Source: a virus
IMG/VR virus record: IMGVR_UViG_3300048597_000081
Span: 1 to 22,890 of that record
Direction: 5' to 3' (one strand)
DNA: 22,890 nucleotides
Below, one piece after another: positions 5,791 to 21,271 of the stretch; position 1 is the stretch's first letter; the number at the start of each line of letters is the position of its first letter. The position numbers were made by a program, and so were the translations under genes. The notes beneath the pieces were generated by a model. It was not told the DNA's origin. It worked only from the letters and a program-made list of their open reading frames with translations, and did no database searches.

Positions 5791-7249
5791 CGGACGGGCT
5801 CGCGTCTGTGTGAACCCCGAGCGCTTCCGTCCAGGCCGCGCCTGCGTCCACGTTCACAATGCCCCGCAGATACCGCCCTTCGACAAACTGCGGGCAATAC
5901 CCATCCTCATTCTGGTCCGTCGCTACTGAAACCGTCTCGGCCTGCTCCAGTGTCTTGATCCGGTAGGCAAGGGCCCCCGAAACCTTGTCCGCCTCGGCAT
6001 CAACCGTGGGATAAAGCTCCGTGACGAACGCCTTGCGCCCGACGATGGGCTCGAACGTCCCCGTTGAGAACGTCGCCGCCCGTGCCGGCCCTGAGAACTG
6101 GCAAATCTGCCGAGAGCCGTTGACCACGCCCCACGACTTGCGCGACTCGCGGAAAGCAGGGCTATCAAACGACACCGACATAGCGTCCACGTCTGCTGTC
6201 CCGAGTAGGGCAATCAGACCCGCTTCGTCGTCAATGTTCACCGGCTCCCGGTGCATTTCGAGGCCATACTGGCTGTCGAAGTCGTCAAACGTCCAACGGT
6301 CATCCGCAAAACTGTAGATCCCGACCATGTTGGGCGATGTGCTGCCCCCGGTGGGAAACCCGATCATCCAAGACTTGCGCTCTGTGTCGATTGCGGCCCA
6401 CGTTTTTTGACGTGCGGAATAGTTGAGCTGAGAGGCAAACCACCGATCAACCCGGTTCTGCCCGATGGGCTGAACCGATGACCCGTCCGTCGTATAAAAG
6501 CCGTCCTCAGCCACACAGAAGGCTTGCCGGCCCCATTCGGACCAAGCATTTGGACCAACAAGGCCGCGTCCGCCTTCCACATCGTCAAACTGATAGGGCA
6601 CTTCCCCACCGAGGAAGTTGAGGCGGGTCATGCCGCGTTCTTGGAACACAAGGCCCTGCTCCCCACCCCATCCCGCAACGATGAGGCCGCGCGCCTGGTT
6701 GAGTTCGTTGGAGAAGGCCTGAGTGGCCGTGTCAGGCGTCCAGTCCAAAACATTGTTGAAGGCGCACGCATGGACGATGTTACCGGCCCCGATGAATACC
6801 TGATTGCGAATCCGGAACACGCAATCTCCGTTCGGAGCCGTGTTCACGTCCTCAAACTGGTTGCTCGAGCCCATCACAAAGCGCTGGAGCTGTTCGCCCC
6901 GTGCAATGGCAAGGATGTTGTTGCCAAACTGAGAGAACGACCAAACCCAATCACGAGAAGCATTGTAAGCCCCTGGTCGGCTGACCGTCTGGGGCAGTTT
7001 CCCGACAATCCGGTAGAGGTTGCCAGCGTCCCCTATAAACGTGAGCGGCTGACCGTCAGGGTCGTAGGCGGTAAAGCCCCCGATGCAGTCGTCAGAAATC
7101 TGCGAACCTGGTCGGATCTGCTCCAGATCGGGCAGAGGCGCATAACGCCCCGACAACGACAGACAGCCCTTGATCGTCGCGCTGTTGCCAGACAAGAGGC
7201 TCTGATCCGGTGCCCATTGGCCGAACGGAACGACAGCCTTCTTCCTCAT
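5780..7249 (-). CDS. Tail hub/nozzle-type protein (P22 gp10-like)
   Basis: This 489-residue protein has an ATG at 7249 overlapping the adaptor stop as ATGA. The sequence shows repeated short beta units ending in aromatic or Gly-Asn positions (LTFIGDAGNLYRIVG, IRNQVFIGAGNIVHAC, LVFQERGMTRLNFLG, WMIGFPTGG, GIYSFADDRWTFDDF). This looks like a beta-propeller. Proteins of this size directly after the gp6-like adaptor correspond to the hub of P22 (gp10) or the nozzle of SU10-type podoviruses, which close the portal channel and carry the tail fibres. The gene order portal, capsid, adaptor, then this gene supports that role. Family assignment is from layout and pattern rather than a specific signature motif. 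Confidence 0.65.
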   Translation of the reverse strand: MRKKAVVPFGQWAPDQSLLSGNSATIKGCLSLSGRYAPLPDLEQIRPGSQISDDCIGGFTAYDPDGQPLTFIGDAGNLYRIVGKLPQTVSRPGAYNASRDWVWSFSQFGNNILAIARGEQLQRFVMGSSNQFEDVNTAPNGDCVFRIRNQVFIGAGNIVHACAFNNVLDWTPDTATQAFSNELNQARGLIVAGWGGEQGLVFQERGMTRLNFLGGEVPYQFDDVEGGRGLVGPNAWSEWGRQAFCVAEDGFYTTDGSSVQPIGQNRVDRWFASQLNYSARQKTWAAIDTERKSWMIGFPTGGSTSPNMVGIYSFADDRWTFDDFDSQYGLEMHREPVNIDDEAGLIALLGTADVDAMSVSFDSPAFRESRKSWGVVNGSRQICQFSGPARAATFSTGTFEPIVGRKAFVTELYPTVDAEADKVSGALAYRIKTLEQAETVSVATDQNEDGYCPQFVEGRYLRGIVNVDAGAAWTEALGVHTDASPSGER

Positions 7250-9528: not shown

Positions 9529-10524
9529 TTAGATGAGGCCCTTGAGCGCTGCCGCAGCAGCCTCAACAGAGCCGGTTTCTTTGAGCCGCGACAAAGCGTT
9601 TGTTCTTGCCGTGTTCGCGGGGTTGGTGGTGGAACGCGCTGCACCCTTCACTAGCTTTGGCTTCGACCGAGCCACCTTGGCGGTCTCAACCTTCTTCGCA
9701 GCCAGATCGCGATATTTCATTGCATCGCGAACTATCTGGAACGCACGAGAATCCATGTTGTTTTTGATCTCTTCATCAGAGAACCCGTAATCCCGCAGGG
9801 TTTTGACGTAGGCGTCCTGCGTTTCCTTGGCCTTGAACTCTGGCCAGGCCTGTTCGAGCTTTGCCCATTCGCGGGCCATGATCGCCTGAGACATGCGCTG
9901 CTGTTCGGCGGTCTGCTCGGATTGAATGCGCTCGCGTTCAGCGTTCACGGCCTGCAATAGCTTCGTGTCGTCCTGATACTTGCGCGCAAGGGCGTGATAC
10001 CGCTCGGGATCGTAATCCGGCGAATTGGGGTCAACCAGCGAGATGGCCGGCGGCGTGGGCTTGGTCAGCCGCTCCACGATGTCCAGCTTCTGCGCGTAGG
10101 CAGAACGAACCTTGTTGTTCTCTTCAATCGACTTGAAGAACTCGTCGGGGACGGTCTGCGCCTTGGTCTTGAGTTCGTTGTATTCAGCTTCAAGCTTCTG
10201 GGCGCGCTCATAGCCTTCGACTAGTTCCGACAGTTTGCGGCGGACAGGTTCCTTGCCTTCCTCACCAGCGTCAAATTCGAACTCCAGATCCTCATCGTCT
10301 TCGGCCGGCGCTTCTGCCGTCTCAACGGGCTGACCCTTGAGGTCTACGACCTTGGCCGGTTCCTCCGATTCCACGACAGTTTCAGCCGGTTCCTTGGCTT
10401 TGAACTGACCAGTTGGAGCGCGGTCACGTTCGTTTGCCGTCAGCTTAGACAGCAAAACCGCAGCCTCAGACGTGCTGACGGGGTTGGCTTCGGCCAATTC
10501 AGACGATACGTTTTCATCCTGCAC
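9529..10524 (-). CDS. Capsid scaffold-type protein
   Basis: I set the start at GTG 10524 (product begins VQDENVSS), because GGAGAAG lies just upstream and the frame opens inside the end of the preceding gene. A longer frame reaches 10569 but has no comparable ribosome site. The protein is about 331 residues, highly charged and helical. An acidic, disordered N-terminal half (EDDEDLEFEFDAGEEG) leads into long coiled coils (YERAQKLEAEYNELK, NAERERIQSEQTAEQQRMSQ), then a helical bundle (AREWAKLEQAWPEFK) and a basic C-terminal tail (KVARSKPKLVKGAAR). This charge layout, the size and the position immediately before the major capsid gene are standard for scaffolds, whose basic tail binds the capsid shell. 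No protease motif is seen. Confidence 0.75.
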   Translation of the reverse strand: MQDENVSSELAEANPVSTSEAAVLLSKLTANERDRAPTGQFKAKEPAETVVESEEPAKVVDLKGQPVETAEAPAEDDEDLEFEFDAGEEGKEPVRRKLSELVEGYERAQKLEAEYNELKTKAQTVPDEFFKSIEENNKVRSAYAQKLDIVERLTKPTPPAISLVDPNSPDYDPERYHALARKYQDDTKLLQAVNAERERIQSEQTAEQQRMSQAIMAREWAKLEQAWPEFKAKETQDAYVKTLRDYGFSDEEIKNNMDSRAFQIVRDAMKYRDLAAKKVETAKVARSKPKLVKGAARSTTNPANTARTNALSRLKETGSVEAAAAALKGLI

Positions 10525-14715: not shown

Positions 14716-15510
14716 TTAGGCCATCGTCCCCTGACGCTGCTTCAGTTTAGCGCCGTCCTGCGGCTTCACCTTTGCAAAGCGAAGCATCATCACCGCGTAA
14801 CGTGTGGCGCTCATCAAATCGTCCCGTTCTTTCACGATCTTGCCGTCTAACCGGTGATACAGGCGGAACTCTTCAAACCAGTCGTTTAGGCCCTTGAAGA
14901 CCTTGAACCGGCCCGTTTCCATCCGCTCGAGCATGTCCATTAGGCCAGCTTCAACACCGTTGCCGCCTTCGGCATGGGTGGCGCGTTCTGGCAGCATGTT
15001 GACGCCTAGCGCCCGATACTGAGCCGCGAGCTGTTCGCCTGATCCTTTGTCGTGTTGCAAACCGTCATGCGGCCATGACACCGGCACCCAATTGCCCCAA
15101 GCGTTGATCGCTGCCGCGTGGATAGCTGGCACCGCCTCGCTTCTGCGATGGCAGGCCGTGACATAAACCGTGTCGTTATCCCGATCCCATGCGATGCGAG
15201 CCGCAGCCGTGGGATGCTCCCAACCAAAGTCGAGGCCGATGATCTGAGGCCAATGCTTTGGAATGGCGATTGGGTCAGTAGAGATCAGCCCCTCTTCAAT
15301 CGGGAAGATGCGGCCCGATCCCATCGTGGGGATGCCCTTGGCCCGCGCTTCTCGCTCATGCGCCGGATAGGACGCAATGATCTGAGCCTTCTCCGCTTCC
15401 GTGTAGTGTTCTACGTCGTCAATGGTCATGCTGACGACGTGGCGGCTCAAAGCAAAATCCTTCCTTCGGCCCGCTGGCGACTTGTCATTTCCTAGATTTC
15501 TATTTCCCAC
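14716..15510 (-). CDS. terL: Large terminase subunit, C-terminal nuclease part (downstream of frame break)
   Basis: This open frame is 264 codons. It can begin at GTG 15510, but a stop codon lies directly before it and there is no clear ribosome site, so independent initiation looks weak. It carries the C-terminal half of a terminase: SMTIDDVEHYTEAEKAQII and HEREARAKGIPTMGSGRIFP link the ATPase to the nuclease. The RNase H-like nuclease shows an Asp in IGLDFGWEHPTAA (about 94), one in WPHDG (about 149) and Asp residues in ERDDLMSATRYAVMM (about 230), the positions expected of its metal-binding residues. The enzyme cuts concatemeric DNA during packaging. The ATPase half is in the frame just upstream, so the working protein would need a +1 shift at 15503-15511. 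Otherwise the gene is broken. Confidence 0.85.
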   Translation of the reverse strand: MGNRNLGNDKSPAGRRKDFALSRHVVSMTIDDVEHYTEAEKAQIIASYPAHEREARAKGIPTMGSGRIFPIEEGLISTDPIAIPKHWPQIIGLDFGWEHPTAAARIAWDRDNDTVYVTACHRRSEAVPAIHAAAINAWGNWVPVSWPHDGLQHDKGSGEQLAAQYRALGVNMLPERATHAEGGNGVEAGLMDMLERMETGRFKVFKGLNDWFEEFRLYHRLDGKIVKERDDLMSATRYAVMMLRFAKVKPQDGAKLKQRQGTMA

Positions 15511-15511
15511 C
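15500..15511 (-). other. Frame break / candidate +1 programmed frameshift site in terL
   Basis: On the minus strand the sequence reads CTA GGT GGG AAA TAG A. The upstream ATPase frame ends at TAG (15502-15500). The downstream nuclease frame is closed by a TAG at 15513-15511 and is open from there on. A +1 shift must therefore happen within GGT GGG AAA. At AAA TAG A, a Lys tRNA could slip forward from AAA to AAT while the ribosome waits at the stop, and AGGTGG just before it resembles a Shine-Dalgarno stimulator. This layout parallels the bacterial prfB site (stop codon in the A site, slip +1, SD-like upstream). A real indel in the short G or A run, or a sequencing error, would give the same picture. 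Confidence 0.5.
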
Positions 15512-16219
15512 TAGCAGGAACAGCGAAACAACTTCGCTCATTCCAAGCAGCGGCGTGAAGGTGATGTAGGTGAACTGCCCCCGCTGGCCTCTGTTGGTAC
15601 GGGTCAGCCCTTCCGTGTAAATGTCTTGCGGCGGTTCCTCATCGAACCAGACCGCGTCAATCGTTGGCCCTTGCCACTTCTCGCGGCCCTTTTCGTAGGA
15701 CTTGAAGTACAGCAGGCTCTCACCGGCTTGCACGTCACCGCCGCCACCCCATCGGATGCGGACGTTATCGAGCAGGTTGGGAACGCCCATCGCACGGTCC
15801 CAGTCAAGCAAGCAATCCTTTGGCACCGTGCCTGTGCCCCATGCTTCCTGCTTTGGCGGGTCGCCAATCAAGACGCGCTGCGGGTTGTCGCGTGTGCTTT
15901 CGGATGTAACGCCCGACGCCCAGATGATAGGGGGCTTCTCAAAGGTCTGGCCTTCCCACCAGTCAGGGTAGCGCCCCGTGAGGTGCATCGCAGTTTCAAA
16001 CCCGCCCGCCCATGTCTTGCCTAGCTGGTTGCCGGCCATAAACAGGCGTTCCGAGTGCTTAGACCCGGCTGCGTGAAACTCCCTCTGCTTTGAATAGGGT
16101 TCGTAAGTTCTCAGCCGGTTAGTGTCGCGACGGCGTTTCGCTTCCGCTTCCAACCTTCTCAGGAGCGCCGCCAAGGACTGCTGATCTAACTGCGCTAATG
16201 AGGGCTGCAACGTCGTCAT
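15500..16219 (-). CDS. terL: Large terminase subunit, N-terminal ATPase part (upstream of frame break)
   Basis: This 239-codon frame has an ATG at 16219, inside the last 101 bases of the small terminase gene. No strong ribosome site is visible, so coupling to that gene is likely. A Walker A motif is clear at residues 62-69 (AGNQLGKT), and Walker B is IDAVWFDEE at about 187-195 with the catalytic Glu. TYITFTPLLGM at about 218-227 is the coupling motif after which terminases normally continue into a linker and nuclease. The frame stops 14 residues later at LFLLGGK. The ATPase motor pumps DNA into the head through the portal. The missing nuclease is encoded in the next frame. Confidence 0.85.
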   Translation of the reverse strand: MTTLQPSLAQLDQQSLAALLRRLEAEAKRRRDTNRLRTYEPYSKQREFHAAGSKHSERLFMAGNQLGKTWAGGFETAMHLTGRYPDWWEGQTFEKPPIIWASGVTSESTRDNPQRVLIGDPPKQEAWGTGTVPKDCLLDWDRAMGVPNLLDNVRIRWGGGGDVQAGESLLYFKSYEKGREKWQGPTIDAVWFDEEPPQDIYTEGLTRTNRGQRGQFTYITFTPLLGMSEVVSLFLLGGK

Positions 16220-16517
16220 CGGTCAACTCGTCCATGGCGTTCGTGTTGACGTTGATGTCTTTGGGAACAATCGCGCCAACAGCCTTGATGAACTCGTGCG
16301 GACGTTCCTCAATAACCCGGTCAATGGCTTCCTTTCCCTTGGCCTGCCAAGCCTCAAGCATGTCCGCTAGGAACGAGTCCGAGAGCTTCTGCTTGGCGTT
16401 CTGAGGCCGTCCCTTGGGGTTTCCTGACTGCCCTGGCTTCCACTTGTAGGGGTCAAGTTGCTTTGCCCCTGTTTTTGCAGTTGCAGATAAGCCTTCAGGT
16501 TTGGTTGGCTTGCTCAT
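16119..16517 (-). CDS. terS: Small terminase subunit-type protein (DUF5681-like)
   Basis: This 132-residue protein has an ATG at 16517 with GAGG eight bases upstream. The N-terminal motif WKPGQSGNPKGRP, at about residues 26-38, marks the DUF5681 family, whose members lie directly before large terminase genes and are taken as small terminase subunits that recognise phage DNA. A helical middle follows (LSDSFLADMLEAWQAKGKEAIDRVIEE). The end overlaps the large terminase start by 101 bases, and the acidic LTDDDVAALISAV helix lies in that overlap. Assignment rests on the motif and gene order; DNA binding is not visible directly. Confidence 0.75.
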   Translation of the reverse strand: MSKPTKPEGLSATAKTGAKQLDPYKWKPGQSGNPKGRPQNAKQKLSDSFLADMLEAWQAKGKEAIDRVIEERPHEFIKAVGAIVPKDINVNTNAMDELTDDDVAALISAVRSAVLGGAPEKVGSGSETPSRH

Positions 16518-16528
16518 ACAATAACCTC

Positions 16529-17584
16529 TTATGCAGCCGCGCCGCTGAATGTCATTCCCCGTTCCCGAGCCAAGTCCAAAAGGGTCTTGTGCGTCATCTT
16601 GGGAGAGGGGTTCATTACGGCGTTGATGGCCTGGTGGGTTTCCGTCATGGCGCGGGGCTGTTCAGGCGTGGGCTTGCCGGTGAGGCGAGCCATCAGCCGG
16701 CCGAACCACGGCTTGCGGGGCTTGCCTTCGTATTCCTCAGCCTTGACCAGCCAGCCGGCGATGGTGAGGAAGAGCGCCAGCACGAACACGGTCAGCAGGG
16801 ACTGGGACAGCTCCAGATCCTCAAGGCTCATGCCTGTAAGGCGGCGCAGGTTGCCGAGGTCGGCGCGGTCAGCAGATGCCAGCACCGGAGCCTGCATGAC
16901 AGCGCGGCGGGCGTCGGCAAGGTCCTGCTCAGCGCCACCTAGGGCGATTTCCTGCTTAGCGATCTGATCCCAAAGGGCAAGATCGGCTTCAGCCGAGAAA
17001 TAACCGTCACAAAACTCCCGCGTCTTCGGTCCTTTGGTTTCTGTGCAGGCTTTGGTCGTGCCCCACCAGCGGTTTGCCTTGGCGTTGGAAATCACGGCTC
17101 GAGCAGCGCCGGGAGCCTGCTTAGGCTTCATCAGGTTGCGCTCTTCACGCAAGCGGGCAACTTTGGCCTCCCCGTCCGCCACAGCCTTGGAGCTATTGTC
17201 GGACTTGGTGAAAGCGGTCAGTTGAGCGTTGGTGAGGTTCGACTGGTTCTGGCTGGCCACGCTGATGGTCGAGTTCACCTCCCAAGCGACGGCACCGCAG
17301 ATGATGAGGGACCAGCAAGCGAAGCTGCCGATCTGGCGCTCGAACCATGCGCGGCAGGCCTTCTGAGCGCCGACATAGTGGAAGCCGACAGCGGCAAGAC
17401 CAAGCAGGACAAGAATTGCCTGTGTGGGGATGTCCTTGGCCTTGTCACCAGAGTAGTAGATCACACTGATGACGCTGGCGAGGATGGCGCAACGGATCAG
17501 CCAGGCCTCAGGCTTGGCGAAAACGCCGTCAATGGCGGATTTGACGGAGCCGATTAGGCCACCGTTTGAGGTTGCTGCGTGCAT
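16529..17584 (-). CDS. Membrane protein with extracytoplasmic coiled coil, upstream of terminase
   Basis: I set the start at ATG 17584 (product MHAATSNGG), because GGAGG lies eight bases upstream; the longer frame to 17641 runs into a terminator. The protein has 351 residues. Hydrophobic segments lie at about 29-46, 55-73 and 88-110. Then comes a polar, coiled-coil-prone stretch of about 145 residues with the pairs Cys180 and Cys192, a fourth helix at 260-281 (LLTVFVLALFLTIAGWLV) and a basic cytoplasmic tail ending LLDLARERGMTF. An N-in topology puts the coil outside and the tail inside. This layout matches the membrane protein at 19501-20442. The 11-base gap to the small terminase gene suggests cotranscription with the late genes. 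The position would also suit a lysis-related protein, but no holin or endolysin signature is seen. Confidence 0.65.
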   Translation of the reverse strand: MHAATSNGGLIGSVKSAIDGVFAKPEAWLIRCAILASVISVIYYSGDKAKDIPTQAILVLLGLAAVGFHYVGAQKACRAWFERQIGSFACWSLIICGAVAWEVNSTISVASQNQSNLTNAQLTAFTKSDNSSKAVADGEAKVARLREERNLMKPKQAPGAARAVISNAKANRWWGTTKACTETKGPKTREFCDGYFSAEADLALWDQIAKQEIALGGAEQDLADARRAVMQAPVLASADRADLGNLRRLTGMSLEDLELSQSLLTVFVLALFLTIAGWLVKAEEYEGKPRKPWFGRLMARLTGKPTPEQPRAMTETHQAINAVMNPSPKMTHKTLLDLARERGMTFSGAAA

Positions 17585-17611
17585 GGGGTGTTCCTCCGAG
17601 GGTCTGGGGAA

Positions 17612-17655
17612 CGCAAAACACAAAAGGCCGAACCCGTTCACATGGGGTTCAGCCT
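17612..17655 (-). terminator. Rho-independent terminator before the late operon
   Basis: On the minus strand an 11-bp stem with one mismatch (AGGCTGAACCC paired with GGGTTCGGCCT, 9-base loop) is followed by TTTTGTGTTTTGCG. Plus-strand arms are 17625-17635 and 17645-17655. It would stop transcription from the small-gene operon (stop at 17912) before the membrane protein and terminase genes. If no promoter lies between it and 17584, late gene expression would need read-through. Confidence 0.75.
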
Positions 17656-18432: not shown

Positions 18433-18686
18433 TCCTTCTGCTGGAGAGCGGAGCGGGCGGCATCCCAAGCTCGATCTATGCGGTCTTGATAGAGTTCACC
18501 GCCGAACGGCCCGTGGTTGTCGTTGATTTCGACAAGCTTGGTCAGCGCCTCCCTAAACCTCCTGATTTGTTCCTCTTGGGATTCGATGAGAGAGGCGGCT
18601 TCTAGGCACCCTTTGCGGGGGTCTTGCGGGGTGTCGAAATTCGCTATGTCCCGCAGCCTTTTCACGAGTTCAGATGCTGTGGTCAT
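18429..18686 (-). CDS. Small coiled-coil phage protein
   Basis: The start is ATG 18686 (product MTTASELVKRL), with GGAGGGATC directly before and an ATGA overlap with the upstream stop. The open frame continues to 18749 but without a ribosome site. The 85 residues begin with a helix (SELVKRLRDIANF), then CLEAASLIESQEEQIRRFREAL, a likely coiled coil, and an acidic C-terminal helix. The 'kAA.lIe.qe..I..lr.al' pattern is very common in small early phage proteins of unknown function. Confidence 0.6.
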   Translation of the reverse strand: MTTASELVKRLRDIANFDTPQDPRKGCLEAASLIESQEEQIRRFREALTKLVEINDNHGPFGGELYQDRIDRAWDAARSALQQKE

Positions 18687-18865
18687 GATCCCTCCCTCTG
18701 CTTTGCTGTAGGCCCTGGAATGCACCTGTAGCCGGCTCGAGTTCCCCATCCGGCCTCAGTCACAAAAGCCTGACCTGCTGCGATGCACTGAGAACGAGAC
18801 TGATAGCCGGGGATGGTGGCTATAGCAGAGACCGGGATAGTCAGTATCAAGACCCAAGTCGTCAT
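18683..18865 (-). CDS. Small exported or membrane-anchored protein
   Basis: This 60-residue protein has an ATG at 18865 with an ATGA overlap. Residues 4-19 (WVLILTIPVSAIATIP) form an N-terminal hydrophobic segment, either an anchor or a signal peptide without a clear lipobox. The rest is polar with two Cys (27 and 48, SQCIAAGQAF and GYRCIPGP), which could form a disulfide outside the cytoplasm. I have seen the 'C...g......' to 'y.C.p' layout in many small phage proteins. Function unknown; an envelope role such as superinfection exclusion is only possible. Confidence 0.55.
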   Translation of the reverse strand: MTTWVLILTIPVSAIATIPGYQSRSQCIAAGQAFVTEAGWGTRAGYRCIPGPTAKQREGS

Positions 18866-19140
18866 CGGCGGCCGTTTGGGTTTGAATACTGGTTCGAATA
18901 CGGGTTCCCATATGTGCCAAACTGGTTGTTCACGCTGTCCGATGAATACGGGTTGCCGTACTTGCCGTAAGGATTCGCGACGCTGTTGGGGTCGTAAGGG
19001 TTGTTATTGAGATTGCCACGGTAGGTGCCGTCAGGTGCGATGATCTTGGGACTGTTGCTGTCGTTCCGGTAGTCCCATCCCTGAGCGAGCGCCGGGGTGG
19101 CGATGGCAATGGCGGCGAGTGCGATGGCTGTGCGGATCAT
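18862..19140 (-). CDS. Secreted Asn/Tyr-rich repeat protein
   Basis: This 92-residue protein has an ATG at 19140 overlapping the repressor stop as ATGA. Residues 1-19 are a classical signal peptide ending PALA, with cleavage before QGWDY. The mature part is built of short repeats: NNNPYDPNSVANPYGKYGN, then PYSSDSVNNQFGTYGNPYSN and QYSNPNGRR. There is no Cys and no catalytic motif. Similar NPYG/SPYS repeat proteins occur in many proteobacteria and on phages and plasmids, with no known function that I can name. It would lie in the periplasm or outside. As the gene directly after a repressor it could be an accessory (moron) gene. Confidence 0.6.
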   Translation of the reverse strand: MIRTAIALAAIAIATPALAQGWDYRNDSNSPKIIAPDGTYRGNLNNNPYDPNSVANPYGKYGNPYSSDSVNNQFGTYGNPYSNQYSNPNGRR

Positions 19141-19310
19141 TTGGTTCCCTTTCGTTTTAGGCCACGGTCAATGGCGTTGCGGGCTTCTGTGGCGATCGTG
19201 GTGCCGTTGCGCTTCGCGGCGTCCTCGAGAGACTCACGCATAGCTGGCGACACTCTGATGCCGATAAATTCTGACGCCCCTAGGGCTTCGTCTTTCTTGG
19301 GTCTGGCCAT
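19137..19310 (-). CDS. Ribbon-helix-helix transcriptional repressor (Arc-like), 57 residues
   Basis: The start is ATG 19310 (product MARPKKDEALGAS) and the stop is TGA 19137. The core reads EFIGIRVSPAMRESLEDAAKR, then NGTTIATEARNAIDRGLKRKG. This is a beta strand with alternating exposed residues (FIGIRV), a helix with conserved small and hydrophobic positions, the turn NGTT and a second helix. That is the fold of Arc/MetJ/CopG repressors, which bind as dimers to short dyads. No Shine-Dalgarno is visible (CCCAGCAGC), so translation may be leaderless or weak. It diverges from the membrane protein gene at 19501 across mirrored operators (19320-19418) and probably represses both sides. It heads the small-gene operon. 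Confidence 0.75.
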   Translation of the reverse strand: MARPKKDEALGASEFIGIRVSPAMRESLEDAAKRNGTTIATEARNAIDRGLKRKGTK

Positions 19311-19319
19311 GCTGCTGGG

Positions 19320-19421
19320 GTAGCATGAACGCTAAACGTTTTCCATTCACGAAAATGTGAATCGTTTCCCTGTGGATTAACCCCATCCCATATTGTTTAA
19401 CGTTAAACGTAATGCTACATT
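19320..19421. promoter_or_regulatory. Divergent promoter region with mirrored operators
   Basis: Two near-identical blocks face outward: GTAGCAT followed by AACGCTAAACGT (19320-19339), and AACGTTAAACGT followed by ATGCTAC (19399-19418). The 12-base cores match at 11 of 12 positions as direct repeats and are themselves near-palindromic. The second contains a perfect 14-base palindrome, GTTTAACGTTAAAC (19395-19408). The outer GTAGCAT/ATGCTAC pair is a perfect 7-bp inverted repeat. A third dyad, ATTCAC-6-GTGAAT, lies in between (19345-19362). This is the layout expected for a small repressor that controls two divergent genes. A possible plus-strand promoter is TTGTTT (19393) and TACATT (19416), spacing 17; it is weak, and no confident minus-strand promoter is seen. 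Confidence 0.6.
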
Positions 19422-19432
19422 CAGAAACAGTT

Positions 19433-19463
19433 GAGGCCGGTAGTGCGCAAACACCCCGGCCTC
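19433..19463 (+). other. Hairpin in the leader of the plus-strand gene
   Basis: An 8-bp perfect stem, GAGGCCGG (19433-19440) with CCGGCCTC (19456-19463), and a 15-base loop lie about 38 bases before the ATG at 19501. No T-run follows, so it is not a terminator. It could affect mRNA stability or translation of the membrane protein. Confidence 0.4.
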
Positions 19464-19500
19464 GATGTCACCTCAACCCGCTAAGATTGGAGAATGACCT

Positions 19501-20442
19501 ATGGAGCATACAACCAACGGACGTGCGCTTGCAATCATCGCCGGCATCACGTTCACAGCCGGTTCGCTTGTCGTCCTTATGGGCGATGTGCTGACCACCC
19601 CGGCCCTCTGGGACCGGTTCCACGTTCTGACGATCCTCACCGTGGCCGCGACGATCTTTGCCGGCCACATGATCGCTGAAGCCAAGGGCGCGCGGACCTA
19701 TCTCGCCGCGGTTGGCTTCGTGCTTGCCTTCGCTGTCGGAACCGCCCTTGTGGTGGCCAACAGCATCGGGAAGCAGGCTGAAGTGTCTGGCACCAGGGCG
19801 CTGGACGCAGAGGCTACGAACACCGCCATCGCCGCCAAGTCTGCCGACCTCGCAAAAGCGAAGCTCCGCTTTGACGATGCGAACAAGTGGGCTGACAAGG
19901 AAATGTCTGGCGAGCGTTGCGGCCAGCGTTGCAAGGATTGGCGTCTGAGGGCAACTGAAGTCGGGGCGCATATCAAGGCCATCGAAGCCGAGATTGCCGC
20001 TCTTGGTCCTCAGAAGGTCGCCAACGCTAAGTCTGAACGGGTTGGCGAGATTGCCGCCCTGTTCGGGTACGACAAGACGAAAGCGAAGGTTGGCTTTGAG
20101 TTGCTGGAGCCGCTTTTGTGGTCTGCGTTTTTTGAGCTTGGCGCGATCGTTTCGTTCTGGTTTGCATTCCGCCCGGTTCGCAAGGCTCCGGTCAATGACA
20201 ACGCCCAGACGAGCTTTCACTTCGAACCGCTGCCCCCGGCAAAGCAGCTCCCGCCGCTCGACAAGACGCTCCCAGCCCTTAAAGGCGAGAACGTCGTAGA
20301 CTGGTCGAAGCGATATTTTGCAAAGCACGGGGAATGGCCGAAGCTGAACCAGATCGAAGCCGCGTTTGCGGAACAGATCGAGGCAGGAGAGTTCAGCCGA
20401 TCGACCGCGTACCGTCGGGTGAAGGCACTCAAGGCAGCCTAA
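19501..20442 (+). CDS. Membrane protein with probable cytoplasmic DNA-binding tail
   Basis: This 313-residue protein has an ATG at 19501, with GGAG about nine bases upstream. It is the only plus-strand gene here. Helices lie at about 9-30, 40-60 and 66-88. A coiled-coil-prone extracytoplasmic stretch covers 95-190 with Cys140 and Cys144 (ERCGQRCKDW). The fourth helix is 201-223 (LLEPLLWSAFFELGAIVSFW). A Pro-rich linker follows, then a C-terminal segment at 264-312 (NVVDWSKRYFAKHGEWP, NQIEAAFAEQIEAG, FSRSTAYRRVKALKA). The last part, with Ser-Arg-Ser-Thr before a basic helix, looks like a winged or helix-turn-helix motif. I infer a membrane-bound regulator, comparable in plan to ToxR or CadC but with an unrelated membrane part. 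Repression by the adjacent RHH protein is likely. It has its own terminator. Confidence 0.7.
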   Translation: MEHTTNGRALAIIAGITFTAGSLVVLMGDVLTTPALWDRFHVLTILTVAATIFAGHMIAEAKGARTYLAAVGFVLAFAVGTALVVANSIGKQAEVSGTRALDAEATNTAIAAKSADLAKAKLRFDDANKWADKEMSGERCGQRCKDWRLRATEVGAHIKAIEAEIAALGPQKVANAKSERVGEIAALFGYDKTKAKVGFELLEPLLWSAFFELGAIVSFWFAFRPVRKAPVNDNAQTSFHFEPLPPAKQLPPLDKTLPALKGENVVDWSKRYFAKHGEWPKLNQIEAAFAEQIEAGEFSRSTAYRRVKALKAA

Positions 20443-20460
20443 CCAGACCTGAAACGAATG

Positions 20461-20494
20461 AGCCCCGCCGGAGCGATCCGAGCGGGGCTTTTTT
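20461..20494 (+). terminator. Rho-independent terminator of the plus-strand gene
   Basis: AGCCCCGC (20461-20468) pairs with GCGGGGCT (20482-20489), with a 13-base loop, and is followed by a run of T (20489-20494) and ATT. It begins 19 bases after the stop of the membrane protein. In the other direction no T-run follows, so it should act on the plus strand only. Confidence 0.9.
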
Positions 20495-20668
20495 ATTGCA
20501 GCGGGGCCGGTCCCCTATTCGTGCGAAGATGCCAGTGATGGCCCCTAGACCGGCGAGGCCGCCGCGCACGCGCTGCAAATTCTTCTACCTGACACTGGTG
20601 AAACTGGCCAGTGTCAGGCCAGTGTCAACCCCATCCCTGCTATGGGAACCAGTGCGGATATAGGTGTC
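20495..20668. other. Gap between two convergent transcription units
   Basis: No convincing gene on either strand. It holds the CCAGTGTCA box cluster (20589-20627) and further CCAGTG half-boxes at 20532-20537 and 20649-20654. It lies downstream of both the plus-strand membrane gene and the NusG-like gene. No T-rich terminator facing the minus strand was found here. Confidence 0.4.
20589..20627. repeat. Three-copy CCAGTGTCA box cluster with a perfect stem
   Basis: CTGACACTGG (20589-20598) and CCAGTGTCAG (20608-20617) form a perfect 10-bp inverted repeat with a nine-base loop. A further direct copy, CCAGTGTCA, is at 20619-20627, exactly 11 bases after the second. The 11-base spacing puts the two copies on nearly the same DNA face. 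On the minus strand the stem is 52 bases past the NusG-like stop but lacks a U-tract. Possible uses are repressor or replication-protein binding, an RNA signal for the NusG-like factor, or RNA processing. Confidence 0.55.
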
Positions 20669-21271
20669 TCATGCAGAGGCTTTCGACGGGGTGATAACCG
20701 GGCCAAGGTCACTCAGCCTCACGCGCACTTTGCACTCGCGGTTGAATATCGTGACCAGCATTTCGGCCTCCTCATGTGAGATTTCCATGATATTCGACTG
20801 GAATCCGCGAAACGGTCCAGCCTCGATAATCCTAGACTCCCCGACCTTAAATGACATCAGGCCGGTGTACGCATTCGGGTTGTCGGCTTGGATCGCTGCG
20901 ATTTCGTCAGGCGCGATCACAACGGGGCGGTCATTCAACATGACCAGCTTAAGAAGGTTCAGCCGGAACAGATCGGCCCACGGGGCGCGGTCACGGAAAG
21001 CAACGTAGATGTAGCCGGGGCAAGACGGGTAGAACACTTCCACCCCTTTCTTGCGCGAGCGTGTGCGCCGCAAGTACCTCTTCTGAGACGGTATCCAGAC
21101 CTTGTAGCCCATGTTCTTGAGGATCATCTGGGCGGCTGCCTCCTTACGGGGAGGCACCTTGTAAACGACCCACCTATCCCCTGTTTCGACAACAGGGCGG
21201 CGATAGTCAAGTTCTGGCGTAAGGCGAACCCGGGCGCGTCGTCCGGTGGGGACGACTGTGATCTGCTCCAC
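20669..21271 (-). CDS. NusG-like transcription elongation/antitermination factor
   Basis: The start is GTG 21271, overlapping the upstream stop (TAGTG), with AGAGGAGGG seven bases upstream. This is the strongest ribosome site in the operon and fixes the start. The protein has 200 residues: a basic N-terminal extension (1-30), then a NusG N-terminal (NGN) domain (about 33-130: RWVVYKVPPRKEAAAQMIL, GYKVWIPSQKRYLRR, VFYPSCPGYIYVAF, NLLKLVMLNDRPVVIA), and a KOW domain (about 140-190: FKVGESRIIEAGPFRGFQSN, then VTIFNRECKVRVRLSDLG). The GPFRGF and IFNRECKVRV positions correspond to the NusG KOW core. NusG-type factors bind RNA polymerase and change pausing and termination. A phage copy that ends the early operon suggests control of phage transcription, perhaps read-through of the terminator at 17612. 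RfaH-type action is possible; the target is unknown. Confidence 0.85.
   Translation of the reverse strand: MEQITVVPTGRRARVRLTPELDYRRPVVETGDRWVVYKVPPRKEAAAQMILKNMGYKVWIPSQKRYLRRTRSRKKGVEVFYPSCPGYIYVAFRDRAPWADLFRLNLLKLVMLNDRPVVIAPDEIAAIQADNPNAYTGLMSFKVGESRIIEAGPFRGFQSNIMEISHEEAEMLVTIFNRECKVRVRLSDLGPVITPSKASA

What the first reader, a model, noticed from the sequence alone, without database searches (positions are those of the whole stretch)
19501..20442. Membrane-bound protein with a cytoplasmic helix-turn-helix-like tail and an outer Cys pair
It is the only plus-strand gene, with its own regulated promoter region and terminator. Three N-terminal helices, a periplasmic coiled coil with CGQRC, a fourth helix and a DNA-binding-like tail form a plan suited to sensing the envelope and acting on phage DNA, or tethering phage DNA to the membrane for replication. 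A phage one-component membrane sensor of this kind is not something I can name from the literature.
Basis: partly seen in the sequence, partly recalled or inferred. Interest (0 to 1): 0.65.

Follow-up and report, generated by a model that had tools for sequence, protein, structure and literature searches.

The report
Phage membrane-anchored DNA-binding regulator
A phage gene makes a protein that sits in the bacterial inner membrane with a paired-cysteine hairpin predicted outside and a DNA-binding-type tail predicted inside, and related phages keep it next to an oppositely pointing gene for a second small DNA-binding protein, so it looks like a membrane-anchored genetic switch not previously described for phages.

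Summary
Gene A (19501-20442, +) encodes a predicted N-in/C-in, 4-TM protein: three N-terminal helices, a long antiparallel coiled-coil hairpin with Cys140/Cys144 at its tip, TM4, a linker and a C-terminal tri-helical tail. It is the only + gene and has a strong terminator. I found eight homologues in IMG/VR contigs (22-51% identity overall). All keep the Cys pair, TM4 and an HTH-type tail. In several the tail is a recognisable winged HTH (MarR/ArsR type); the window's own tail is a divergent tri-helix without a family hit.

A is not isolated. In 11 of 12 loci the gene transcribed divergently from A (or from its short operon) encodes a small RHH or Cro/XRE-type DNA-binding protein. Most loci lie between the early genes (often a NusG-like antiterminator) and the packaging genes. 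The same wHTH tail also occurs on a different Cys-pair membrane module (L117) and as a soluble protein at the same locus (L106). A's membrane module is homologous to gene B, beside TerS.

Best reading: a phage-encoded transmembrane transcription regulator, half of a divergent Cro/CI-like switch. DNA binding, sensing and regulated targets are inferred, not shown. Class known in bacteria; the phage form and its module appear new.

The parts
19501..20442 (+). Gene A: 313-aa membrane protein with C-terminal HTH-type tail
   Evidence: ORF; 8 viral homologues; AlphaFold2 model
19525..19758 (+). Predicted TM1-TM3 (residues 9-27, 40-58, 68-86); H41 and H56 invariant in 9 members
   Evidence: hydropathy; alignment; N-in by positive-inside counts
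19759..20112 (+). Predicted periplasmic coiled-coil hairpin (residues 87-204)
   Evidence: model helices 67-134 and 142-168, pLDDT 82-94 for most of it
19900..19935 (+). Hairpin tip (residues 134-145, EMSGERCGQRCK) with Cys140 and Cys144
   Evidence: two Cys at this place in all 9 members
20113..20169 (+). TM4 (residues 205-223) with invariant F-x-E-x-G motif (E212)
20293..20436 (+). C-terminal tri-helical HTH-type tail (helices 265-276, 282-295, 300-312)
   Evidence: AlphaFold2 of the tail alone, mean pLDDT 75; homologous position holds wHTH in relatives
20460..20497 (+). Intrinsic terminator of gene A
   Evidence: -26.6 kcal/mol, z -4.8, U-run
19311..19500 (.). Divergent control region between gene A and the RHH gene
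   Evidence: sequence
19328..19339 (.). Repeat copy 1 AACGCTAAACGT
19399..19410 (.). Repeat copy 2 AACGTTAAACGT, overlapping perfect palindrome GTTTAACGTTAAAC (19395-19408)
19347..19360 (.). Motif TCACGAAAATGTGA, 37 bp upstream of the RHH start codon; same place in L102 (exact) and L119 (1 mismatch), about 40 bp in L106 (2 mismatches)
19137..19310 (-). Divergent partner: 57-aa Arc-like ribbon-helix-helix protein
   Evidence: phrog_228 Arc-like E 0.006; RHH or XRE at the same place in 10 other loci
20669..21271 (-). NusG/RfaH-family transcription antiterminator, apparently last gene of the early operon, convergent with A
   Evidence: PF02357 E 2e-6, phrog_6386 E 4e-15; same neighbour in L097, L098, L102
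16529..17641 (-). Gene B: 4-TM Cys-pair membrane protein without HTH tail, homologous to the membrane module of A
   Evidence: hhalign 95%, E 2e-8; reversed/shuffled controls at most 6.5%
16119..16517 (-). Probable terminase small subunit (DUF5681) next to B
   Evidence: synteny
14716..16219 (-). Terminase large subunit as two overlapping genes (ATPase part 15500-16219, nuclease part 14716-15510)

Best explanation
Gene A encodes a phage transmembrane transcription regulator. Its N-terminal part anchors it in the inner membrane and projects a Cys-tipped coiled-coil hairpin into the periplasm; its C-terminal HTH tail stays in the cytoplasm. The tail most likely binds operators in the divergent region 19311-19500 that it shares with a small RHH (elsewhere Cro/XRE) protein, so the two form a Cro/CI-like divergent switch at the early/late boundary of a temperate phage. 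Membrane or periplasmic state (Cys redox, assembly through the coiled coil, or pairing with the homologous late protein B) would set the tail's activity. Supported here by computation: architecture, topology, HTH-type tail in the family, conserved divergent DNA-binding partner, conserved position in most loci, homology A-B, tail swapping. Inferred: DNA binding by the window's tail, its operator, the signal, the direction of regulation and any role of B.
For: Nine A-type members share the plan. Tails of L089/L100 match MarR_2 (E 6e-6), L092/L102 match DUF7343 (E 1e-5), and L099 matches MarR_2 (E 4e-4). The tail profile finds AdcR (E 3.5e-4), SmtB, NmtR and other MarR/ArsR repressors in the PDB. 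Three members match Sta1/Lrs14-type HTH regulators. The window tail is predicted tri-helical. N-in/C-in by charge. Divergent RHH/XRE gene in 11 of 12 loci, with none recognised, by eye, upstream of B in six related loci without A. Motif TCACGAAAATGTGA: the only matches with at most 1 mismatch in 1.25 Mb are in A loci, 37 bp upstream of the RHH start codon. Conserved place between early and packaging genes in most loci. Tail fused to a different membrane module in L117 (tail 98.8%, 51% identity; module 93.6% to another B family) and free in L106. Integrase in 5 of 8 related records searched, 4 of the 7 that carry A, and an S24/Cro-type repressor in L097: temperate phages.
Against: The window's own tail has no Pfam HTH hit and no significant PDB fold match. 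L100 lacks a visible partner gene and lies beside virion genes. Two of the loci with a partner (L120 and, beyond gene B, L097) do not show the full early/packaging arrangement. Palindromes in the divergent regions are individually weak outside window, L096 and L117. No experiment. HTH folds in membrane proteins can serve protein contacts (RodZ, from memory). The phages carry an ordinary CI-like repressor elsewhere, at least in L097.
Confidence: 0.6

Rival explanations
1. Membrane tether for phage DNA: A recruits phage DNA to the membrane for replication, segregation or packaging, in the manner of phi29 p16.7/p1, without specific gene control.
For: Membrane anchor plus HTH tail; related membrane protein B lies beside the packaging genes; phi29 uses membrane proteins p1 and p16.7 to anchor replication (PMC4974454).
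Against: Soluble tail-only form at the same locus in the L106 prophage; divergent RHH/XRE partner and own terminator suggest a separately regulated unit; complete phage MW202785 with integrase, RfaH-type protein and B shows no A.
Confidence: 0.13
2. Lysogenic-conversion or superinfection-exclusion membrane protein whose HTH-like tail serves protein contacts (as the RodZ HTH does), with the RHH/XRE gene simply as its repressor.
For: Lone opposite-strand gene with own promoter region and terminator is the usual dress of a moron; absent from some relatives; window tail has no recognised DNA-binding family.
Against: Tails are MarR/ArsR-type wHTH in relatives, swap between membrane modules and occur alone, which fits a DNA-binding effector better than a scaffold.
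Confidence: 0.15
3. Anti-phage defence or toxin-antitoxin pair: A is a membrane toxin or effector and the RHH/XRE protein its antitoxin or repressor.
For: RHH and XRE proteins are common antitoxins (general knowledge); membrane helices with a cytoplasmic domain occur in abortive-infection effectors. Weak PADLOC hits of relatives (best 1e-3, AbiEi).
Against: Divergent rather than co-transcribed; the window protein has no PADLOC match and the relatives only weak ones; the C-terminal domain is HTH-type, no enzymatic domain found.
Confidence: 0.06

Closest known systems
Transmembrane transcription regulators (TTRs: ToxR, CadC, TcpP type; PMC10269533)
   Same: One polypeptide with an HTH-type domain and TM helices, predicted to act from the cytoplasmic membrane
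   Different: Phage-encoded; 4 TM with C-terminal DNA-binding-type tail and a Cys-tipped coiled-coil hairpin instead of an N-terminal domain, single TM and globular periplasmic domain (ToxR layout from memory); paired with a divergent RHH/XRE gene
HigX-type LytTR regulators of Caulobacter (PMC13384398)
   Same: Four TM helices N-terminal to a C-terminal DNA-binding domain, with a low-complexity linker
   Different: HigX has no apparent periplasmic domain and a LytTR domain; it is chromosomal
CI/Cro-type divergent phage switches
   Same: Two divergently transcribed DNA-binding protein genes sharing a control region; partner is Cro/XRE-like or Arc/RHH-like
   Different: One partner is membrane-anchored; located at the early/late junction; a separate CI-like repressor exists (L097)
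phi29 p16.7 and p1 membrane proteins
   Same: Phage membrane proteins that bring the phage replication machinery or DNA to the membrane
   Different: Different topology (4 TM, periplasmic hairpin) and no sign of a replication operon
Gene B family / DUF4407-like 4-TM coiled-coil proteins
   Same: Homologous membrane module to A (B: 95%)
   Different: B has no HTH tail and sits in the packaging operon; DUF4407 resemblance of B is sub-threshold (E 0.019)

Membership tests
Transmembrane transcription regulator (TTR) | at least one transmembrane region | tested here: met
   4 TM by hydropathy and AlphaFold2
Transmembrane transcription regulator (TTR) | DNA-binding domain in the same protein | tested here: inconclusive
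   In relatives L089/L100, L092/L102, L099 significant wHTH matches, though below curated cut-offs; for the window tail only a predicted tri-helix, no Pfam or PDB match
Transmembrane transcription regulator (TTR) | DNA-binding domain on the cytoplasmic side | tested here: met
   Positive-inside counts give C-in across 8 members; prediction only
Transmembrane transcription regulator (TTR) | controls transcription while membrane-bound | not testable with these tools
   needs reporter, ChIP and fractionation experiments
MarR/ArsR-type wHTH (tail) | sequence-profile match to the wHTH family | tested here: inconclusive
   Relatives match just below curated cut-offs (MarR_2 26.7 of 27 bits); family tail profile hits AdcR/SmtB; window tail not met
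CI/Cro-like divergent switch | divergent gene for a second small DNA-binding protein | tested here: met
   11 of 12 loci, several with weak family scores plus inspection
CI/Cro-like divergent switch | shared operators bound by both proteins | tested here: inconclusive
   Repeats, palindrome and conserved motif present; binding not tested
phi29 p16.7-type replication anchor | DNA binding with role in membrane-associated replication | not testable with these tools
   no replication gene is co-transcribed with A in the window
Known anti-phage defence protein | PADLOC model match | tested here: not met
   0 matches for the window protein, only weak ones for relatives

The most novel reading that the evidence does not exclude
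Temperate phages carry a membrane-anchored half of a bistable switch at the early/late junction. A reads the envelope through its Cys-tipped hairpin (for example oxidation state, a second phage at the surface, or pairing with the homologous late membrane protein B, which lacks the HTH tail and would act as an antagonist) and passes this directly to the promoters it shares with an RHH/Cro partner.
Probability: 0.25. Interest if true: 0.85.

Novelty: new variant of a known kind. Interest (0 to 1): 0.62.

Why it matters
The well-known phage lysis-lysogeny and late-gene regulators are cytoplasmic; a phage regulator that works from the membrane would let a prophage respond to envelope events without a host sensor. 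The module is compact (two divergent genes), recurs in phages with different packaging genes, and swaps DNA-binding tails between membrane modules, so the idea can be tested in a reporter strain with one intergenic region and one protein.

Tried and rejected
Direct homology searches of A in annotated phages and plasmids: nothing, also with L004, L099, L100 and L117 as queries against phages. The first two-sequence profile in 385 alphaproteobacterial genomes: nothing. Pairwise BLAST of A and B: nothing; only profile comparison shows the relation, and reversed or block-shuffled controls fail. DUF4407 and 7TMR-DISM hits are sub-threshold and not used. Genome hits L104 and L105 match only the tail and look like chance HTH proteins. 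Sigma-70 promoter scan: none. Foldseek of the tail against the PDB: no significant hit. BFVD hits to the full model (prob 1.0) are unnamed phage proteins with low TM-scores, not used beyond saying that the plan recurs. Idea that an intron splits terL: no Rfam match in four loci. Toxin/defence reading: no convincing PADLOC support. Six further pattern hits were checked; only L117 and L119 were relatives.

Full report
What was checked. The window is a complete IMG/VR record of 22,890 bp, a fragment of a phage with a 712-aa portal (phrog_1216) and a terminase in two genes. Gene A, 19501-20442 (+), is the only apparent gene on its strand. It has a strong intrinsic terminator just downstream and, convergent with it, a NusG-family antiterminator gene at 20669-21271 (-).

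The protein. Hydropathy gives TM at 9-27, 40-58, 68-86 and 205-223. AlphaFold2 with eight sequences gives a long helix 67-134, a turn at the CGQRC motif, a return helix 142-168, TM4 within 192-223 and three short helices in the tail (the hairpin is confident, the tail and packing are not). Predicted alone, the tail folds as three helices, 265-276, 282-295 and 300-312, mean pLDDT 75, but this shape finds no significant PDB partner and the sequence finds no Pfam HTH. Charges around the TM segments summed over eight members favour N-in and C-in with the Cys hairpin outside.

The family. No annotated phage or plasmid record matches. Loci around related terminases gave one homologue; a DNA pattern for the TM4 motif gave more, a profile scan more again, and a tail pattern one more. 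In total nine A-type proteins: window, L096, L097, L098, L101 (= L004), L102 (= L092), L100 (= L089), L099 and L119. Positions invariant in all nine include H41, H56, P204, E212 and C144; every member has a second Cys at the hairpin tip. Invariant His and Glu residues inside or beside the TM helices suggest that the membrane part is more than an anchor (inference). In relatives the tail is a winged HTH: MarR_2 E 6e-6, DUF7343 E 1e-5, MarR_2 4e-4; a profile of eight tails finds AdcR, SmtB, NmtR and other MarR/ArsR repressors in the PDB.

Modularity. The same tail is fused to another Cys-pair membrane module in L117 (tail: hhalign 98.8%, 51% identity; module: 93.6% to another family of the B kind). 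An L117-type module carries a different HTH in a bacterial prophage, L120. In the prophage of genome G101 the tail stands alone as a 107-aa soluble protein at the equivalent locus. A's membrane module is homologous to gene B (16529-17641), which lies beside TerS and lacks an HTH tail (95%, E 2e-8; reversed and block-shuffled controls at most 6.5%). The window phage thus holds two related membrane proteins, one with and one without a DNA-binding-type tail.

Genomic logic. In most loci A is a lone gene on the opposite strand between the early region (a NusG-like gene in window, L097, L098 and L102) and the packaging or B genes. Exceptions: L100 (beside virion genes, contig end), L120 (rearranged prophage) and L097 (B present, terminase not seen next to it). 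The gene divergent to A, or to the short + operon that ends in A, encodes a small RHH protein (window, L099, L101, L102, L119, L106, L120) or a Cro/XRE-type HTH protein (L096, L097, L098, L117), i.e. 11 of 12 loci; several of these assignments rest on weak family scores plus inspection. Six related loci without A show no such gene upstream of B, judged by eye. The motif TCACGAAAATGTGA lies 37 bp upstream of the RHH start codon in window, L102 (exact) and L119 (1 mismatch), and about 40 bp upstream in L106 (2 mismatches); no other match with at most 1 mismatch occurs in 1.25 Mb of loci, about 5 being expected by chance at the laxer limit of 2 mismatches. The window region also has two AACGYTAAACGT copies and a 14-bp palindrome. 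Tyrosine integrase was found in 5 of 8 records searched, 4 of the 7 that carry A, and a CI-type S24 repressor in L097, so these are temperate phages.

Mechanism. The simplest account is a transmembrane transcription regulator that controls the promoters it shares with an RHH/Cro partner. The periplasmic Cys-tipped hairpin is the obvious input, the HTH tail the output; B could pair with A through the homologous hairpin. These last steps are inference. DNA tethering (phi29 p1/p16.7; PMC4974454) and a scaffolding HTH remain possible.

Compared with what is known. Transmembrane transcription regulators are widespread in bacteria and archaea (PMC10269533; the word phage does not occur in its main text), and Caulobacter HigX has four TM helices before a C-terminal DNA-binding domain but no apparent periplasmic domain (PMC13384398). 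Paper searches for phage-encoded members returned nothing relevant, within an open-access library only. I therefore call it a new variant of a known kind.

Limits. The family was found by motif-based scans, so its true size and the fraction with a partner gene are unknown; hosts of the viral contigs are unknown; all functional statements are predictions.

Noticed in passing
window 14716-16219; also L002, L004, L005, L007-L009, L011, L012, L014, L027, L029, L030, L049 and MW202785: The terminase large subunit is two adjacent genes (ATPase part and nuclease part) broken at the same conserved place (after TPLxGMSxVV, before TIDDVEHY), with 0 to 2.1 kb between them in different phages; other relatives have a fused gene. 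No Rfam intron was found in four loci.
   Followed up: partly
window 16529-17641 and loci L002, L008, L009, L027, L096, L097, L098, L102, L119, L106: A family of 4-TM coiled-coil proteins (mostly with a Cys pair, often C..TKGP.TR.FC) sits directly upstream of or near TerS in many phages; the MW202785 copy lacks the cysteines. Function unknown.
   Followed up: partly
L097 about 6880-7000, L098 about 9885-10002, L099 about 9700-9800: A short peptide of about 29-39 aa with one hydrophobic helix is encoded upstream of A, overlapping its start in L097 and L098: a possible small membrane partner.
   Followed up: no
L106 9745-10068 (-): Soluble 107-aa wHTH protein (MarR_2 E 4e-5) in a bacterial prophage at the position where other phages have the membrane-anchored form, beside an RHH gene and a B-like membrane gene.
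   Followed up: yes
window 18683-18865 and 18862-19140 (-): Two small proteins with signal-peptide-like N-termini lie between the RHH gene and gene B.
   Followed up: no
L101 3865-4326 (-): GIY-YIG-like (T5orf172-type) protein with a C-terminal RHH-like segment next to the RHH gene; assigned by eye.
   Followed up: no
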